A DNA stretch of 64,000 nt from a virus. Made by a program: the position numbers and the translations under genes. This document shows positions 54,135-63,540 of the stretch, piece by piece. Location of the stretch: positions 20,544-84,543 of the IMG/VR virus record IMGVR_UViG_3300030419_003252, one strand, 5' to 3'. Position 1 is the stretch's first letter. The number at the start of each line of letters is the position of its first letter. The notes beneath the pieces are model-generated. The model ran no database searches. It was not told where the DNA came from and worked only from the letters and a program-made list of their open reading frames with translations.

Positions 54135-55193
54135 ATGGGCGGTACTAGAGTAACTTACAATCCACCACCACCACCTCCAAAGGATGATTTTCCTGAAAAA
54201 TATTTAGCGTATCAACAAAAGAAAGATGAAGATCGTGATTATGTAGATTGGACTAAACAATTACAAAAGTATCAAACTCAGAAGAGTCAACAAGCAAGTG
54301 GTAGAGCAGGTTGGCAAGATTTTAAAACAGGAATTCAGAATCAACTTGGTCAAAATTTATTAACTTATGAAGGAGCTAGAAAAGCATTAACAGATTATGC
54401 AAGTAAATATAATTTAGCTGGGGGCTTACAGGGACCTGGTGCTGACCCTCGTAAGAATTGGGAACGTTATCAAACTGATGGTCCTGAAGGTGGATTTACG
54501 GAATTACCTGATTATCAAACACCTGATAGTTGGAAAGATTGGAGTGTTCAAGGTGCATTAACGGAGTTACACAACAAGTATGCTGGTGCATCTGTTGATG
54601 ATCCGTCAACACCTGATATTGATGAAAGTTTAGGTATTAGAGGTACACGATTTAAAGCAGGTGTGAATCAGCTTTATAAAGAACTTTTAGGTCAAGATGC
54701 GACTGCAGATCAATTAAGCACTGCAATGTCGAATTATAAACTAGGAGTTAATGCTGATATTGATTCACTTAGAACATCAATAATATCAAGTAAAGATTAT
54801 AAAGATAAATTCCAGAAGAGTTATTTAGAAAATTATTATGATAGTGAATTTGGTGAAGCATTAAAAGATGCTGAAGGTAAATCTACTAAACAACGTACTT
54901 GGAAATTTAATAAGAATTTATTACCTAAATATGCTGAAGGTTTAGGAGGTAAAACAGGTATAACAACTCCTGAATTTACAGATACGTTTACAGGAACTCC
55001 AAGTGAAATTAAGGAACAAATTCAAAATGTCAGAGATACTCGTAAATTCTTATATAGTGCTGGGCTAACAAATCTTCAAGGAGATATTGATAAAGAAACT
55101 CAGAAACTTAAGAACGAAGGTGGTAGAGAAATTGCAAGAATTGGTAAAGAAGGAGATATTTATCAAAGTGTAGTAGGTGCTTTTAATTTCTAA
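54135..55193 (+). CDS. Virion-block protein, unknown
   Basis: A 352-residue hydrophilic protein (MGGTRVTYNPPPPPPKDDFP). A Pro-rich N-terminus is followed by many Tyr/Lys/Gln-rich helices with KAGVNQLYKELLGQDATADQ, which recalls EF-hand-like or DUF4214-type repeats (a guess). It starts 2 bases after the previous stop. Function unknown. Confidence 0.55.
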   Translation: MGGTRVTYNPPPPPPKDDFPEKYLAYQQKKDEDRDYVDWTKQLQKYQTQKSQQASGRAGWQDFKTGIQNQLGQNLLTYEGARKALTDYASKYNLAGGLQGPGADPRKNWERYQTDGPEGGFTELPDYQTPDSWKDWSVQGALTELHNKYAGASVDDPSTPDIDESLGIRGTRFKAGVNQLYKELLGQDATADQLSTAMSNYKLGVNADIDSLRTSIISSKDYKDKFQKSYLENYYDSEFGEALKDAEGKSTKQRTWKFNKNLLPKYAEGLGGKTGITTPEFTDTFTGTPSEIKEQIQNVRDTRKFLYSAGLTNLQGDIDKETQKLKNEGGREIARIGKEGDIYQSVVGAFNF

Positions 55194-55243: not shown

Positions 55244-55432
55244 ATGTCCGATGATCTATTAACTCAACCAGAAGGACAAACTGGTGGCGATGATTATTTT
55301 GATATTTATAAATTTGAGAATCTCCTTTCTCGTTTAGAAGCTTCAAAAGGTCGTCAACAACGTCAGAAATCTTTAGAAGGTCGCCGTGATACATTCGCAG
55401 CTGGTCTTTCTAACATGATGAGCAATTTCTAA
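55244..55432 (+). CDS. Small virion-block protein with DDYF motif
   Basis: A 62-residue protein (MSDDLLTQPEGQTGGDDYFD). GGDDYFDIYKFENLL near residues 14-28 shares a short motif with the next gene and with the protein at 56236. The remainder is helical and basic. AGAGGA precedes the ATG. Function unknown; a docking peptide is inferred. Confidence 0.6.
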   Translation: MSDDLLTQPEGQTGGDDYFDIYKFENLLSRLEASKGRQQRQKSLEGRRDTFAAGLSNMMSNF

Positions 55433-55454
55433 ATTCTCTTAGTTTATTTTCGTC

Positions 55455-55709
55455 ATGGCTACTGGTAACACTGTCCCTACAGGACAAACTGATGTCGATG
55501 ATTGGTTTGACCTGGATAAGTATAGAGAAGCTGCTGGAGTAGCCTACGAATTTTCCAAAAAGAAAATGGAGGCTGCTGGTGAAGAAGATAGAAAAACTAT
55601 CGGTGAAAAAGGTACCCAACAAAGAACCTCTGCAAAACAAGAGCAGGAATTCCGTCAAAAAGACGAAGAGAGAGACTACAAGCAGGCGCAACGAGCTTAT
55701 AGATATTGA
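55455..55709 (+). CDS. Small protein with DDWF motif, upstream of terminase-small-like gene
   Basis: An 84-residue protein (MATGNTVPTGQTDVDDWFDL). DVDDWFDLDKYREAAG at residues 13-28 is the second example of the DDxF motif. The rest is a charged helix ending RDYKQAQRAYRY. The stop TGA (55707-55709) lies at the start of the conserved part of the next frame, so ribosomes could shift +1 there and produce a fusion. It may be either a free protein or the N-terminal part of a longer one. Confidence 0.55.
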   Translation: MATGNTVPTGQTDVDDWFDLDKYREAAGVAYEFSKKKMEAAGEEDRKTIGEKGTQQRTSAKQEQEFRQKDEERDYKQAQRAYRY

Positions 55710-56196
55710 GCTATTTGATGCATGGGTTGATAATTTAGATTCATCAACTCAAGAGTCTTTTTGTTCTTTTTCTTCCGATAATTATTCAGTCATCGAAATA
55801 TATTTATATTCCCGATTCCTTGGTTATCGGGGATCTATTACTGCGTGTGATCTTTGGATAAAAAATAACTATAAAAAACCAGATCATCGTCAAAAGCTTT
55901 TATTTGAAATAGATGAGATGCAAGAAGATATTCGTAAATTAAGAGCTGATGTAGAAACAGGTTTAGTTAAACGTGATGCAGGGGTTGCACGTATTGCTTC
56001 TATGCAAAAAGAAGTACGTGGTCATATAGATCAAGTTGATAAATTTACAAATACTAAAGATAGAAAAGGATTATTAATGGCTGGTGCAGATCGAGCTATT
56101 AGAGAATTAATGTTTATTTTTAAAGACGATCCAATTGAAATACCTTTAGAAGAAGCAACTATGAGTGTCTGGGCAAGAATGCAGTTAGAAGAGTAA
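55579..56196 (+). CDS. Possible terminase small subunit, start uncertain
   Basis: The frame opens at GTG 55579 and gives 205 residues, but the first 40 overlap the previous gene and look like its shadow. Convincing protein starts near ELIDIELFDAWVDNL (about 55695) and includes YSVIEIYLYSRFLGYRGSIT and a C-terminal coiled coil (EIDEMQEDIRKLRADVETGL). There is no ATG until 55917. Translation may use GTG, a non-AUG codon or a +1 shift from the upstream gene. Lying 1.8 kb before the large terminase gene, it is a candidate small subunit; the fold cannot be verified. Confidence 0.5.
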   Translation: MKKIEKLSVKKVPNKEPLQNKSRNSVKKTKRETTSRRNELIDIELFDAWVDNLDSSTQESFCSFSSDNYSVIEIYLYSRFLGYRGSITACDLWIKNNYKKPDHRQKLLFEIDEMQEDIRKLRADVETGLVKRDAGVARIASMQKEVRGHIDQVDKFTNTKDRKGLLMAGADRAIRELMFIFKDDPIEIPLEEATMSVWARMQLEE

Positions 56197-56204
56197 TAGA
56201 AGTA

Positions 56205-56229
56205 AAATAGATTATATAAAAATTAGAAG
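56205..56229 (+). promoter_or_regulatory. TAAAATA late-promoter candidate 1
   Basis: TAAAATAGATTATATAAAAA lies just upstream of the gene at 56236. It matches the motif at 57141-57162 (TAAAATAGTTTTATATAAAA) in sequence and position, and weaker forms precede the genes at 52008 and 60096. It is probably a late promoter or a shared AT-rich leader. Confidence 0.5.
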
Positions 56230-56235
56230 CAAAAA

Positions 56236-57123
56236 ATGGGTGCTAATAAAGAACCAAAAGCTATGCAAGCTGCTGTAGATCAATTAGAAGCTGCGAAGCG
56301 ATCTAGAGAAGAACGTGCAGGAGCTAATAAACGTAGAGATGCTCAACCTTCTTCTCAAGGACCAAAGACATTTGATGCATTAATTTCTGGCTTACAAGCT
56401 GCAGCAAGAAATAGAAAAGAGCAACAAGCAGCAGAGAGAAGACCATTAAGTGAACCTGCTCCTGTCGGTGCTCCTCCTCCTAGAGATGATTATTTTAGTC
56501 CAGATCGTTTTGCAGCTATGGGTGGAGATTTAAATGCATTAGCGGAAATGCGAAACAAAGTAAAAGGTGGAATCACCCCATCAGGTTGGACACCAGATGC
56601 TCCTAGTCCTACTCCTGCTAGAAATGATTATTTTGATAGAGATCGTTTTGCAGCTATGGGTGGAGATCTAAATAAATTAGATGAAATTAGAGGTAATCCT
56701 CGGACACCAGATGCTCCTAGTCCTACTCCTGCTAGAAATGATTATTTTGATAGAGATCGTTTTAATGAAATGCGAGAAAGAATTGAAGAAAGACGAGCAG
56801 GCAGAAGAAAATCTTTAGATGAAAGAAGAAAATCTTTGGATGAAAGAAGAAGAAGACAAGAAGAATTTAAGAGAGAATTGATAAGAAGAAGAAGAGGTAT
56901 TGATTTTGGTCCTGGAAGAGGTCGTCGTATAGAAGGTCGTCCTGTAGATAGAAATATAGTAAGAGGTCGATATGAAGACCAAATGAATACAGGAGTTTCA
57001 CCATTTGGAGGTTCTTTAGGAGATGGCGATTTTATAAATCCTGAAGATGCTAAAAGAGGTCAACAATATTTAGATTTTATGAAACGAATAATGCGTCAGA
57101 AACAAGGTCAATTCGATAGATAA
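56236..57123 (+). CDS. Virion-block protein with 38-residue repeats and NDYF motifs
   Basis: A 295-residue protein (MGANKEPKAMQAAVDQLEAA). It has three units with (D/N)DYFxxDRFxxM: DDYFSPDRFAAMGGDL, NDYFDRDRFAAMGGDL and NDYFDRDRFNEMRERI, separated by Pro-rich linkers such as TPDAPSPTPARND. A 62-base DNA repeat is exact at 56588-56649 and 56702-56763 (period 114 bases = 38 codons). A basic Arg-rich coil and a flexible C-terminus follow. It may be a scaffold or docking protein, since neighbours share the motif. Confidence 0.65.
   Translation: MGANKEPKAMQAAVDQLEAAKRSREERAGANKRRDAQPSSQGPKTFDALISGLQAAARNRKEQQAAERRPLSEPAPVGAPPPRDDYFSPDRFAAMGGDLNALAEMRNKVKGGITPSGWTPDAPSPTPARNDYFDRDRFAAMGGDLNKLDEIRGNPRTPDAPSPTPARNDYFDRDRFNEMRERIEERRAGRRKSLDERRKSLDERRRRQEEFKRELIRRRRGIDFGPGRGRRIEGRPVDRNIVRGRYEDQMNTGVSPFGGSLGDGDFINPEDAKRGQQYLDFMKRIMRQKQGQFDR
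56588..56763 (+). repeat. In-frame tandem repeat, period 114 bases
   Basis: Two 62-base identical segments, 56588-56649 and 56702-56763, encode the same TPDAPSPTPARNDYFDRDRF peptide, a sign of recent duplication inside the gene. Confidence 0.8.
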
Positions 57124-58041: not shown

Positions 58042-59568
58042 GTGCCTTCTTATACCCATCTTGCTTATAGACGTAATGCGAAGGCTGCAGCACGTAATCA
58101 ACAAATAAAAAAACCTAAAAATTTAGAATCTTTAGAACGAGCAAGAGAAGATTTTGGATTCTTTTGTGATTATGTAGCTGATAAACCTCCTGCATATCAT
58201 CACAAAGAGTGGAATAGAAATTTTATAACAAATGAAAATAGTAGTTGTTTAATAAAAATTGCTGGACCAAATGTAGATCTTCTTGCTCCTCGTGGTTCTG
58301 CAAAATCAACTGTTCTTGGTTTATTAACTGCGTGGGCTATTGGAATTCATACACAAGCTGGTAAACCATTACAAGTTCTTTATCTTTCTTATACTGTTGA
58401 TATTGCACGATCTAAATCTGCAACTATTAAACGAATTATTGAAAGTAAACGATACCAAGAAGTCTTTCCTAAAGTACGTCTACTTAAAAATGTAACTAGT
58501 AATGAATATTGGTCTATTGATCATAAATTTGCAGGAATAGATACCACTGGTGAAGAACAATTTACGCTTTGTGCTGCTGGATTAAAAGGGTCTGTGACTT
58601 CTAAACGTTCTCATCTAGTTATGATTGATGACGCTATAAAATCAGCTGCTGATATCGCCAATCCTGATATTCGTAAAACAATGCAGGAAAATTGGAATGC
58701 AGTTATCGCTCCGACTATGTTTGAAGGGGGTCGGGCTATTTGTCTTGGGACTCGTTTTAGGCATGACGATATTCATTCCACCACCTTTAACGAACAAAAT
58801 AATTGGACTCAAATTGTACTCTCCGCTATACAAAATGATCCTATAACAGGTGAAGAGAAATCTTATTGGCCTGAGATGTGGTCGTTAGATTATTTAAAAG
58901 AAAAGAAACGTCAATCACCAATTGCTTTTTCTTTTCAATACATGAATAAAGTCGTTCGACAAAATGAATTATCACTTGCACCTGAACTGATTGTTAAAGC
59001 AGAAATATCAACTGAATTTGATACGTTAGGAGTAGGAGTTGATTTATCAGCAGGTATTCGAGAAAAGAATGATTACACCGTTATGGTTCTTGGAGGAAGA
59101 ATTGAAGATCGAATACACATTATTGATTACAGACGAATACGAGTTATGGGTAATTTAGAAAAATTAGATGCTCTAAAAGAATTACTTAATGACTGGTCAA
59201 TCATTGGAATTGATCAAAATAAAATTTATTACCCAACTCATTCCACATGCGACATTTGGTCTGAAGCTGTTCAATATCAAGCATCTTTAGAAGCTGACTT
59301 TAAACGTATTTGTTTGCAAAATGAAAATTTATATAATCTAATTTGGCATCCAGTTAAAGGTTTTAGAGGAGATAAGTTAGCTAGATTCCGTGGAATTATG
59401 GGCATGTTTGAAGATAGAAAAATTATATTTAACCGCTATCGAAACTTTACAAATATGTTTGAAGAATTAACTAACTTTGGTGTTAGTGGACATGATGATT
59501 GTGTAGATGCTCTTGTTTGGTTAGTTACTGGACTAATGAAAAAAGGTTCACTTCAATTAGACTTTTGA
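58042..59568 (+). CDS. terL: Terminase large subunit
   Basis: A 508-residue protein starting at GTG. Walker A APRGSAKST (residues 82-90) and Walker B HLVMIDD (191-197) mark the packaging ATPase, and LCLGTRF-type ICLGTRFRHDDIH (233-245) is the coupling motif region. The RNase H-like nuclease has GVGVDLSAGIREKNDYTVMV (D334 first acidic residue) and GHDDCVDALVWLV (483-495) near the end. All key residues are present, so it should cut and pump DNA into the procapsid. Confidence 0.92.
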   Translation: MPSYTHLAYRRNAKAAARNQQIKKPKNLESLERAREDFGFFCDYVADKPPAYHHKEWNRNFITNENSSCLIKIAGPNVDLLAPRGSAKSTVLGLLTAWAIGIHTQAGKPLQVLYLSYTVDIARSKSATIKRIIESKRYQEVFPKVRLLKNVTSNEYWSIDHKFAGIDTTGEEQFTLCAAGLKGSVTSKRSHLVMIDDAIKSAADIANPDIRKTMQENWNAVIAPTMFEGGRAICLGTRFRHDDIHSTTFNEQNNWTQIVLSAIQNDPITGEEKSYWPEMWSLDYLKEKKRQSPIAFSFQYMNKVVRQNELSLAPELIVKAEISTEFDTLGVGVDLSAGIREKNDYTVMVLGGRIEDRIHIIDYRRIRVMGNLEKLDALKELLNDWSIIGIDQNKIYYPTHSTCDIWSEAVQYQASLEADFKRICLQNENLYNLIWHPVKGFRGDKLARFRGIMGMFEDRKIIFNRYRNFTNMFEELTNFGVSGHDDCVDALVWLVTGLMKKGSLQLDF

Positions 59569-60657: not shown

Positions 60658-60804
60658 ATGAAAACAAAAAAGCTTATTAAACAAGCTATAAAAAATAAAA
60701 AGCTATTTTCACAAGAAGAATTACTTTACTTTAAAAAGTGGTTATATCTTAAGAAACAAGCGAAAGCTGCTAAAATCATTAAAAGGAAAGGGGTAAAAGA
60801 TTAA
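60658..60804 (+). CDS. Small Lys-rich protein before portal
   Basis: A 48-residue basic protein, MKTKKLIKQAIKNKKLFSQE then ELLYFKKWLYLKKQAKAAKI. It is probably one or two basic helices. The stop overlaps the portal start in TAATG. FSQEELLYFKKWLYLKKQ fits a small conserved type in cyanophage virion blocks. Function unknown. Confidence 0.6.
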   Translation: MKTKKLIKQAIKNKKLFSQEELLYFKKWLYLKKQAKAAKIIKRKGVKD

Positions 60805-63146
60805 TGGCTACCGACGCTAAGGCCCGTCTTAAAGAAATTATTGATTCTTATCTTGAAAGAGATGGAGGAGGAGGAATTGATACTGGTATCGTAGCGTCAC
60901 ATTTAGCACAAATGAGACTCTTTGGTATTAGACAAGGAGTTGAATTTTTTCCTGCTCAAGACAATTTTGGTAATCAAAGAAAAGATTATATTGATCGAAT
61001 TATTAAATATAATCAACTTGATTCAAGATTAGATTCAATTTGGGATTATTTTTTATGTGATGGTCAAGGATTATTTTATATAAGACCAACACAAAATAAT
61101 TATCGTTTATATTTCTTCCGTAAACACGAATATCGTAGTTATTACAATGTAGATGGAGAATTAGATGAAGTTGTAATTATCTATAGTTATAAAAAAAGAA
61201 GAGGATTAGGAGGAGAACAACCTATAGCTGATTCTTCTTTAACAGGTCAAGATCCACATAGTAAACATGGTAAAAAACATTACATTCGGATTTCAATTAA
61301 AAGAAAAGAAATAGTTGAAACACATTCAGAACATGAAATAAAATTTGAAGCTCCCTATCCATCTATGCCAGGGAAAACAAAAGAGTTAAAAAATACTTTA
61401 GGTTTTATTCCTTGTGTAGAAATTTTCAATAATCCAAAAGGTTTTTCTTCTGAAGGTTCTGGAGAATTTGATGCTTTAGCTAATCACATCTGTACTCATG
61501 ATGAGATTATGCAAACCATGAGAAAGAACGTTACTTTCTTTGGTAATCCAACTTTATTATCGTCAAGACCTAAAACTGATTTAGTAGAAGCAGGTGGGGA
61601 AGCAAGTGTTCAACGTCCCTCTATTGCAGCTAATTCAGGATTCGTTGGACTGGGACCTTTAAGTGCTTCCCGCTATAAATCTGATCCTGTGTCTCGTGGT
61701 GTAGATGGTCAAATACGAGTACCTAGAATTATTGCAAATCTAGAACCAAATGATCGTGTAGGTTATATCGTTCCTGATGCAATCACTGGAGATCAAAATG
61801 CATTTTCTCGTCAATATCGAGAAGAAATACGTACAGCTTTAGGTGGTGTTGATGAGTTATCTATATCAGCTGGAGTAACAGCTACTGAATATAAATCATT
61901 ATTTGGACGAGTTGCAGCTACATCTAAAAAGAAAGCAAAAGCTATTTACGATTATGGTCTTTGCCGTTGTTTAGAATTAATTATTTTCCAAGAAGAAAAG
62001 TTATTTAAAGAAACTCTTGCAGCCGCTGCTGGACTAGAAAAACCAATTGAATTACCTGATGGTGCAAGTGAAGAAGATAATTATGCTTATGAACAAGCTC
62101 AAGCAATGTTTGACCAACAAGTTAAAAATTTAATGATGGCTTGTTTGCAAACTGAGCAAATACCTCCAGGTGTTATTGGTTTAATTCCTGATGGTGATGT
62201 AACAATCCAATGGAGATGGATGGGGCCAGTTTATGAGGACTCAACTCAAGACGTATTAAATAATTCAATTGTTGTAAGAAACCTACAAGAATTAGGGGTA
62301 GATAGCATAGAAGCACTGAAATATCTCTTTCCGTCCAAGACGGATGAGGAAAGAGCAGCAATGCTTTCGGGGTTCCCATTCAGAATGGTGAACGAATTGC
62401 AGGGTGCATACTCTCAATTTGCCAAATTAGTGGGGGGAATGATGCAGACTCCTCACCCACAGTCACCCGACTTACCTATGGCAGCAGATCCACGCCTAGA
62501 TCTGACACCATATCTGTATCGAACACTCGAGGCGTTACAAAAGGAGATGAGTTATGCAGGACGCTACCGTCCAATCGACCCAACCGACGAGCCAAGCACC
62601 AGCAGCCGTCGCACCGAACAGCTACGTGGCGGCAGCTCCAGCAGCTCCACAGGCGGTTCCACAGGCACCAGCCCCATATCAAGTGGGTACGAGCTTCCCT
62701 CAAGCCGTTCCACAGGCGGTCCCCAGTTACCAATCAGCCCCTACTCAGTACGCCCCCCAATCCCAGACTCCATCTTCGGAGGCGGGCAATCCATGGGAGT
62801 CGGCGTTCAACAAGGTGGTAGGGGTCCTGAGCGCACCAGTCCAATCCCCGTTCCAGGGTCAACAGTCGCAGATACCGACTCAGTATTCCCAGGCCAACTA
62901 CGGACAACCCAGCGTCCAGGCTACGCCACAATCGGCTCCGCAGACTTGGCAACCCAGCCAGACATCATCGCCCAACTATTCCCAAACCTCTTCGACTCCT
63001 TCTCAAGAGCGGCTCGCAGAGATAGCCCAGGAAGTGGGGATGAGCAACGACAGCAGGGTAGTGATCGACGCGTTCGGGATAGAGGCTCCAGCGATACTAA
63101 ACCAGTACGCAGTAAATCTAGAAGGAATGCTCGACAACGCAGTTGA
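60804..63146 (+). CDS. Portal protein with long Ser/Pro/Gly/Arg-rich C-terminal tail
   Basis: A 780-residue protein. An N-terminal helical region, WDYFLCDGQGLFYIRPTQNN (about residue 76-95), KTKELKNTLGFIPCVEIFNN and a central region with VPRIIANLEPNDRVGYIVPD and REEIRTALGGVDELSISAGV fit portal (gp8/SPP1-like) proteins of tailed phages. From about residue 583 (62550) the tail turns to Ser, Gly, Thr, Pro and Arg with high-GC codons and overlaps another gene for 593 bases. A portal normally forms the dodecameric DNA channel at one capsid vertex. Confidence 0.8.
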   Translation: MATDAKARLKEIIDSYLERDGGGGIDTGIVASHLAQMRLFGIRQGVEFFPAQDNFGNQRKDYIDRIIKYNQLDSRLDSIWDYFLCDGQGLFYIRPTQNNYRLYFFRKHEYRSYYNVDGELDEVVIIYSYKKRRGLGGEQPIADSSLTGQDPHSKHGKKHYIRISIKRKEIVETHSEHEIKFEAPYPSMPGKTKELKNTLGFIPCVEIFNNPKGFSSEGSGEFDALANHICTHDEIMQTMRKNVTFFGNPTLLSSRPKTDLVEAGGEASVQRPSIAANSGFVGLGPLSASRYKSDPVSRGVDGQIRVPRIIANLEPNDRVGYIVPDAITGDQNAFSRQYREEIRTALGGVDELSISAGVTATEYKSLFGRVAATSKKKAKAIYDYGLCRCLELIIFQEEKLFKETLAAAAGLEKPIELPDGASEEDNYAYEQAQAMFDQQVKNLMMACLQTEQIPPGVIGLIPDGDVTIQWRWMGPVYEDSTQDVLNNSIVVRNLQELGVDSIEALKYLFPSKTDEERAAMLSGFPFRMVNELQGAYSQFAKLVGGMMQTPHPQSPDLPMAADPRLDLTPYLYRTLEALQKEMSYAGRYRPIDPTDEPSTSSRRTEQLRGGSSSSSTGGSTGTSPISSGYELPSSRSTGGPQLPISPYSVRPPIPDSIFGGGQSMGVGVQQGGRGPERTSPIPVPGSTVADTDSVFPGQLRTTQRPGYATIGSADLATQPDIIAQLFPNLFDSFSRAARRDSPGSGDEQRQQGSDRRVRDRGSSDTKPVRSKSRRNARQRS
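62542..62546 (+). promoter_or_regulatory. Shine-Dalgarno inside portal gene
   Basis: AGGAG 7 bases ahead of ATG 62554 (AAAGGAGATGAGTTATG) supports internal initiation of the overlapping gene. Confidence 0.65.
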
Positions 63147-63540
63147 GTGGGGAAATAGAGCAGCTGAAAATATTAAAGGTTTTGCAAATTTTGCTGTTCA
63201 GGAACATCAAGAGAATTTAGCTTATAACGAAATTCTTACAAATCCTGACGTTCTTAGTGATTACACTTTGAAGTTCTTCGGTCCAGAAGGCCCTCATCCT
63301 GTATATGAGAACACAGCTCAGTTAGAGACAAGAGGTTATCCAACACAACCTGTTCAAGGTCAGCAAGTTGGACAACAGACTCAAATGCCAGCTCCTCCAG
63401 CTGCTGCTGCTCCACAGCAACCAGAAAATTTCTGGGGTAGCTTCAATGAGCAAATGGCAAGAGATCCACAGAATGCTTGGAAGATTCTTAACCAAGCACA
63501 GCCAGGAACCGTACAAAATAAACTCTTTGTAATGGAGTAA
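62554..63540 (+). CDS. Putative scaffold/head-assembly protein overlapping portal
   Basis: A 328-residue protein. Its N-terminal 195 residues are Pro/Ala/Gln-rich and disordered (SQAPAAVAPNSYVAAAPAAP), and its C-terminal part has helical segments (LAEIAQEVGMSNDSRVVIDA) and NEILTNPDVLSDYTLKFFGP. The last element resembles the end of cyanophage scaffold-type proteins. A Pro/Gln-rich disordered N-terminus with a compact helical end suits a scaffold. The first 593 bases are also read as the portal tail in another frame. The 3' part is AT-rich like the rest of the genome. Confidence 0.65.
   Translation: MQDATVQSTQPTSQAPAAVAPNSYVAAAPAAPQAVPQAPAPYQVGTSFPQAVPQAVPSYQSAPTQYAPQSQTPSSEAGNPWESAFNKVVGVLSAPVQSPFQGQQSQIPTQYSQANYGQPSVQATPQSAPQTWQPSQTSSPNYSQTSSTPSQERLAEIAQEVGMSNDSRVVIDAFGIEAPAILNQYAVNLEGMLDNAVEWGNRAAENIKGFANFAVQEHQENLAYNEILTNPDVLSDYTLKFFGPEGPHPVYENTAQLETRGYPTQPVQGQQVGQQTQMPAPPAAAAPQQPENFWGSFNEQMARDPQNAWKILNQAQPGTVQNKLFVME

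What the first reader, a model, noticed from the sequence alone, without database searches (positions are those of the whole stretch)
55285..56800. DDYF-type motif shared by three neighbouring proteins
GGDDYFDIYKF (gene at 55244), DVDDWFDLDKY (55455), and DDYFSPDRF and NDYFDRDRF twice (56236) all fit (D/N)D(Y/W)F(D/S)xx(R/K)(F/Y). They lie near the N-termini or in linkers of otherwise unlike proteins in the head block, so the motif may be a docking peptide for a common partner such as the major capsid protein, portal or terminase.
Basis: seen in the sequence. Interest (0 to 1): 0.7.

Follow-up and report, generated by a model that had tools for sequence, protein, structure and literature searches.

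The report
Shared N-terminal peptide in cyanophage head-block proteins
Two small neighbouring proteins of an S-EIV1-type cyanophage begin with the same short peptide because they share ancestry at that end; the peptide is real and under selection, but many relatives have lost its signature letters, so it may help assemble the virus head without being the universal docking tag first proposed.

Summary
(D/N)D(Y/W)F(D/S)xx(R/K)(F/Y) occurs five times in the window, only in the three named genes, against 0.001 expected from shuffling. The window is an S-EIV1-type cyanophage.

The motif has two origins. (1) Genes A (55244) and B (55455) share a homologous 25-residue N-terminus, roughly MTSSVPxGQxxxDD[YW]FD[IL]xK[FY] (profile-profile E 2e-10); A is tandemly duplicated in many relatives. 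(2) The three copies in protein C (56236) are one internal DNA repeat, and most relatives' C proteins lack the motif.

In a motif-unbiased sample of 81 loci, 61/102 A copies and 71/81 B copies keep the full motif. Those lacking it mostly keep F-[DN/S]-[IVL]-x-x-[FY]-x-x-L-L, the start of a helix. A docking role in assembly is plausible but untested.

By-product: the conserved gene after B (small-terminase candidate) starts at a GTG inside B with its own ribosome-binding site, a conserved 131-nt overlap. It looked like a +1 frameshift until this was checked. The overlap is noteworthy; the motif is modest.

The parts
55244..55432 (+). Gene A, 62 aa; motif DDYFDIYKF at residues 16-24 (55289-55315), then a conserved segment FENLLSRLEASKGRQQRQKSLEGRRD...GLSNMMSNF
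   Evidence: 224 relatives in IMG/VR; copies in tandem in many relatives; homolog in S-EIV1 KJ410740
55455..55709 (+). Gene B, 84 aa; motif DDWFDLDKY at residues 15-23 (55497-55523), one long predicted helix 20-83, C-terminus QAQRAYRY
   Evidence: AF2 model
55568..55581 (+). Ribosome-binding site GGAGG (55568-55572) and GTG start (55579-55581) of the next gene, inside gene B in the +1 frame
   Evidence: conserved: GTG with SD-like match in 158 of 175 distinct B genes and 156 of 181 junctions, ATG with AGGAG in two further ones; letters checked
55579..56196 (+). Overlapping gene, 205 aa, helical, small-terminase-like by position; its first 43 codons lie in gene B in another frame
56236..57123 (+). 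Gene C, 295 aa, low-complexity, fast-evolving protein; DDYFSPDRF 56485-56511, NDYFDRDRF 56623-56649 and 56737-56763
56468..56801 (+). 82-nt direct repeat, three copies, that carries the three motif copies of gene C; copies 2 and 3 share 62 identical bases (56588-56649, 56702-56763)
54183..54203 (+). Lead only: DDFPEKY near the N-terminus of the gene upstream of A; in relatives PPP(P/K)DD(T/S)F(A/E)K(Y/F)LxY, similar letters with other spacing
   Evidence: 61 of 76 distinct relatives match
58042..59568 (+). Terminase large subunit, landmark
   Evidence: PHROG 38 E 4e-77, Pfam Terminase_6C, 80% identical to S-EIV1

Best explanation
The motif is the N-terminal segment of two paralogous small helical proteins (A and B) encoded side by side between the internal-protein genes and the terminase gene of S-EIV1-type cyanophages. 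It consists of a flexible leader (often SVPxGQxxx) followed by DD[YW]FD[IL]xK[FY], which caps a long amphipathic helix (FD[IL]xx[FY]xx LL/AA). Shown: A and B are homologous over this stretch, and amino acids rather than codons are conserved there. Inferred: A and B arose by tandem duplication, as gene A still does in many genomes, and the segment anchors each protein to the growing head or packaging machine. The aromatic helix face would do the binding and the acidic DD[YW] would tune it, which is why DD[YW] can be lost while F-[DN]-[IL]-x-x-[FY] stays. The copies in gene C are a separate local gain, spread inside the gene by DNA repeat expansion.
For: Homology of the A and B N-termini: hhalign 25 columns, E 2e-10, 40% identity; BLASTP of the two window proteins E 2e-5. 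Tandem copies of A, 1 to 3 per genome, and degenerate A-like neighbours: S-EIV1 54-aa ORF QGFSLDGFTGLLDRLRESKDRQ, L117 GNFDTQRFEGLLSKL. Residues invariant with free synonymous codons: A in 140 distinct genes, B in 175. Hydrophobic core kept in A copies without DDY. AF2 of B: helix 20-83 with the motif at its N-terminal end, low confidence there. Repeat expansion in C. Position in the head block next to terminase.
Against: No binding partner is shown and virion membership of A or B was not tested; the S-EIV1 paper was not held. The A/B likeness rests on about 25 residues, so a transferred or convergent peptide is not excluded. Motif presence in A and B is associated across loci (46 both, 25 B only, 9 neither, 1 A only; Fisher p 0.0014, not corrected for phylogeny), but 25 genomes keep it in B alone.
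Confidence: 0.5

Rival explanations
1. Docking peptide proper: the acidic-aromatic motif is a short linear motif that binds one shared partner (capsid protein, portal, scaffold or terminase), and A, B, C and possibly the gene upstream of A use it to be recruited, as first proposed.
For: N-terminal or linker position and nearly invariant letters with free codons; the motif turns up in low-complexity C proteins of the window, L064 and L071, with a near-match in L005; a similar DD[TS]F(A/E)K[YF]L stretch starts the neighbouring conserved protein; presence in A and B is associated.
Against: Full motif absent in 41 of 102 A copies and 10 of 81 B copies in an unbiased sample; most C relatives lack it; the A/B likeness is explained by homology; the upstream gene's version has different spacing.
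Confidence: 0.25
2. Head-targeting leader: the N-terminal 20 to 25 residues direct A and B into the prohead, as the N-terminal capsid targeting sequence does for T4 internal proteins, possibly with cleavage.
For: N-terminal position, small proteins, location among presumed internal-protein genes (a gp14-like hit upstream is below Pfam's cut-off), exchangeable leaders in A and B.
Against: No protease or cleavage site was identified or searched for; in A the body is more conserved than the leader.
Confidence: 0.12
3. Plain paralogy: DD[YW]F is only the helix cap of a duplicated small protein, with no separate docking function.
For: Homology, helix start at residue 20, loss of DD[YW] while the hydrophobic helix face persists.
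Against: D, F, D and K are nearly invariant in the main group, which is more than helix capping usually needs; B keeps the full motif in 71 of 81 loci.
Confidence: 0.13

Closest known systems
Synechococcus phage S-EIV1 (KJ410740) and its environmental relatives
   Same: Same gene order around A, B, the overlapping gene and terminase; A 78% and terminase 80% identical; motif present in its A and B
   Different: Its A and B are annotated only as hypothetical proteins; no motif copies in its gene C region; its terminase gene spans about 1 kb more than the window's
Capsid targeting sequence of phage T4 internal proteins (from own knowledge)
   Same: Short N-terminal segment shared by several small proteins made in the head block
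   Different: No sequence comparison was made; no cleavage or prohead protease was tested here
Encapsulation and docking peptides (SLiMs) in multi-component shells (from own knowledge)
   Same: Short acidic/aromatic helix-forming stretch at a flexible terminus, several copies in one low-complexity protein
   Different: No shell partner identified; motif not retained across the family
Programmed frameshift fusions in phages (Listeria phage PSA +1 shifts, PMC5009743)
   Same: Gene B and the next gene overlap in the +1 frame, with synonymous constraint at the end of B
   Different: A conserved ribosome-binding site and GTG start inside B explain the second protein without frameshifting

Membership tests
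S-EIV1-type A and B gene families | Sequence similarity and synteny with S-EIV1 and IMG/VR relatives | tested here: met
Universal docking motif of this phage group | Motif retained in relatives of all carriers | tested here: not met
   61 of 102 A copies, 71 of 81 B copies; most C proteins lack it
Universal docking motif of this phage group | Binds a common head partner | not testable with these tools
   no complex prediction or binding data available
T4-type capsid targeting sequence | N-terminal in the carrier protein | tested here: met
   A residues 16-24, B residues 15-23
T4-type capsid targeting sequence | Cleaved by prohead protease; carrier packaged in the head | not tested
   no protease search and no virion proteome at hand
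Programmed +1 frameshift (B to next gene) | Downstream frame has no initiation site of its own | tested here: not met
   GTG with SD-like match in 156 of 181 junctions; all 181 have an in-frame start upstream; two exceptions use ATG with AGGAG
Small terminase subunit (gene at 55579) | Encoded just upstream of the large subunit in conserved synteny | tested here: met
   one to three small genes lie in between
Small terminase subunit (gene at 55579) | Sequence or fold match to known small terminases | tested here: inconclusive
   no PHROG, Pfam or PDB sequence match; weak helical-hairpin match to 4xvn, Foldseek E 9.7, VIA Z 7.1, no better than unrelated helices

The most novel reading that the evidence does not exclude
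The acidic-aromatic N-terminal stretch is a recruitment code of S-EIV1-type phages: one head component reads DDxF...K(Y/F) on several proteins (the protein upstream of A, A, B and, in some phages, C), with spacing variants still recognised, so that gain, loss and multiplication of the motif tune what is built into the head.
Probability: 0.15. Interest if true: 0.6.

Novelty: new member of a known kind. Interest (0 to 1): 0.33.

Why it matters
S-EIV1-type cyanophages recur widely in the viral metagenome contigs searched here, yet the proteins of this block carry no function. The work gives A and B a family definition (conserved core, tandem copies, exchangeable leader), shows which part of the motif is essential by conservation, and corrects the start of the overlapping gene, the best small-terminase candidate, which the S-EIV1 record starts at a TTG after B's stop codon. 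If the docking idea were shown, these peptides would offer a handle on head assembly in a phage group without genetics.

Tried and rejected
(1) Chance: rejected, 5 observed against 0.001 in shuffles. Rejected after the conserved GTG with SD inside B was found; the constraint is explained by dual coding. A translation of the supposed fusion and its alignments are therefore not used as evidence. (3) AUU or AUC initiation at B's stop: six of 181 junctions lack any ATN codon there. (4) Consensus RNA structure at the junction: none by RNAalifold. (5) Gene C as three independent carriers: rejected, one repeat. (6) Profile scan for further motif carriers among the other gene families of these loci: no family scored like A and B; the only lead is the weak N-terminal resemblance in the gene upstream of A. 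(7) Fold search to name the gene at 55579: inconclusive. (8) A search for close relatives of protein C in IMG/VR found none. (9) The S-EIV1 genome paper is not in the library.

Full report
Setting. The window is bases 20544-84543 of an 84.5-kb virus record. The terminase large subunit is 80% identical to that of Synechococcus phage S-EIV1, the only phage record that matched, and protein A is 78% identical. The gene order around the finding is the same in S-EIV1 and in the IMG/VR relatives examined: internal-protein-like genes, A, B, a conserved 205-aa gene, a variable gene (C), a 54-aa gene, terminase large subunit, portal.

The five motif copies are at the stated genes and nowhere else in the window. 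The expectation from shuffling is 0.001. In the 80 loci fetched with protein A, nearly every genome carries the motif in both A and B, usually behind PxGQ.

What the motif is. In A and B the likeness is not limited to nine residues. The two families align over 25 columns at the N-terminus, MTSSVPxGQxxxDD[YW]FD[IL]xK[FY] (hhalign E 2e-10). Outside this segment they differ. Tandem duplication is a live process here: A occurs once to three times per genome, and degenerate A-like ORFs sit beside it in S-EIV1 and L117. In codon terms the motif is selected at the protein level: D, F, D, K are nearly invariant while their third bases vary. AF2 of B gives one long helix from residue 20 with the motif at its start, at pLDDT around 57 to 63, so this placement is suggestive only.

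Protein C. The three copies in C lie in one 82-nt repeat, and copies 2 and 3 share 62 identical bases. Relatives' C proteins are low-complexity and fast-evolving; besides the window only L064 and L071 carry the motif, with a near-match in L005. Similarity of C to A beyond the motif is not significant (BLASTP E 0.10).

Conservation test. The first set of loci was fetched with A itself and is biased towards the motif. I therefore counted in loci fetched with the neighbouring 205-aa gene: 61 of 102 A copies and 71 of 81 B copies keep the full motif (at least one A copy there, in L240, is cut by a contig end and counts as lacking it). A copies without it keep F-[DNK]-[IV]-x-x-F-x-x-L-L-x-[RK]-L-E-x-S-K; B copies without it keep an acidic-F stretch before the helix or have another leader. 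Loss in A and B is associated (Fisher p 0.0014), but related phages are not independent and 25 genomes keep it in B only.

A lead. The gene upstream of A starts in 61 of 76 distinct relatives with PPP(P/K)DD(T/S)F(A/E)K(Y/F)LxY. The letters resemble the motif but the spacing differs, so I do not count it as a carrier. It is the main reason the broader recruitment reading is kept at 15%.

The overlap after B. The gene at 55579 overlaps B by 131 nt in the +1 frame. All 181 distinct junctions keep B's stop and the +1 frame, and synonymous choice in B collapses over its last codons (for example arginine -5 almost always CGA, tyrosines -3 and -1 always TAT). I first read this as a programmed +1 frameshift, because most junctions have no start codon near the stop. 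Looking further upstream, glycine -43 of B is GGT in 161 of 175 genes, which makes a GTG in the +1 frame, with a GGAG-type site just before it in 158 (in the window GGAGG 55568-55572, GTG 55579). GTG plus SD is present in 156 of 181 junctions, and two exceptions use an ATG with AGGAG two codons away. Internal initiation with dual coding is therefore the better explanation, and frameshifting is rejected. The S-EIV1 record starts this gene at a TTG after B's stop codon, which is probably too late.

The gene at 55579. It is one of the most conserved genes of the block. AF2 gives an all-helical model, mean pLDDT 78. Position suggests a small terminase subunit, but no sequence or fold search supports that specifically.

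Mechanism. Best supported is that A and B are paralogous helical proteins whose shared N-terminal segment anchors them during head assembly, with the hydrophobic helix start essential and DD[YW] modulating. Homology and selection are shown; the anchoring role is inferred from position and conservation, with no partner identified.

Verdict. The motif is real, selected and confined to this phage group as far as searched. Its sharing is mostly explained by paralogy plus one repeat expansion. Interest is modest; the conserved dual-coding overlap is the more useful by-product.

Noticed in passing
window 55568-55709: The gene at 55579 starts at a GTG with its own ribosome-binding site inside gene B; 131-nt same-strand dual-coding overlap conserved across the phage group. 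The S-EIV1 record starts this gene at a TTG after B's stop codon.
   Followed up: yes
window 62554-63540: An ORF overlaps the last 593 nt of the portal-like gene (60804-63146) in the +1 frame. Its conserved part already starts before the portal stop, also in relatives and S-EIV1; overlapping gene or other arrangement, not resolved.
   Followed up: partly
L008 1732-3147: The homolog of the gene upstream of A begins MA followed by an intein-like (Hint) insert of about 130 residues ending in HN, before the PPPP-DTTF leader; a second relative starts in a similar way.
   Followed up: no
L037 5866-6177; L235; L238: Some A copies carry, in place of the usual leader, a longer one with a DYxxYLxxYPDLxxAF...HYxxxGxxEGR repeat-like sequence (L037 copy: MDNGDYAGYLNRYPDLKSAFGSDLEAARDHYNRSGRAEGR).
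   Followed up: no
L083 (KJ410740 54080-56620): The S-EIV1 terminase gene is about 1 kb longer than the window's and matches in two pieces, which suggests an insert such as an intein or intron.
   Followed up: no
window 56803-56844: Tandem 21-nt repeat (RRKSLDE) in gene C directly after the third motif copy.
   Followed up: no
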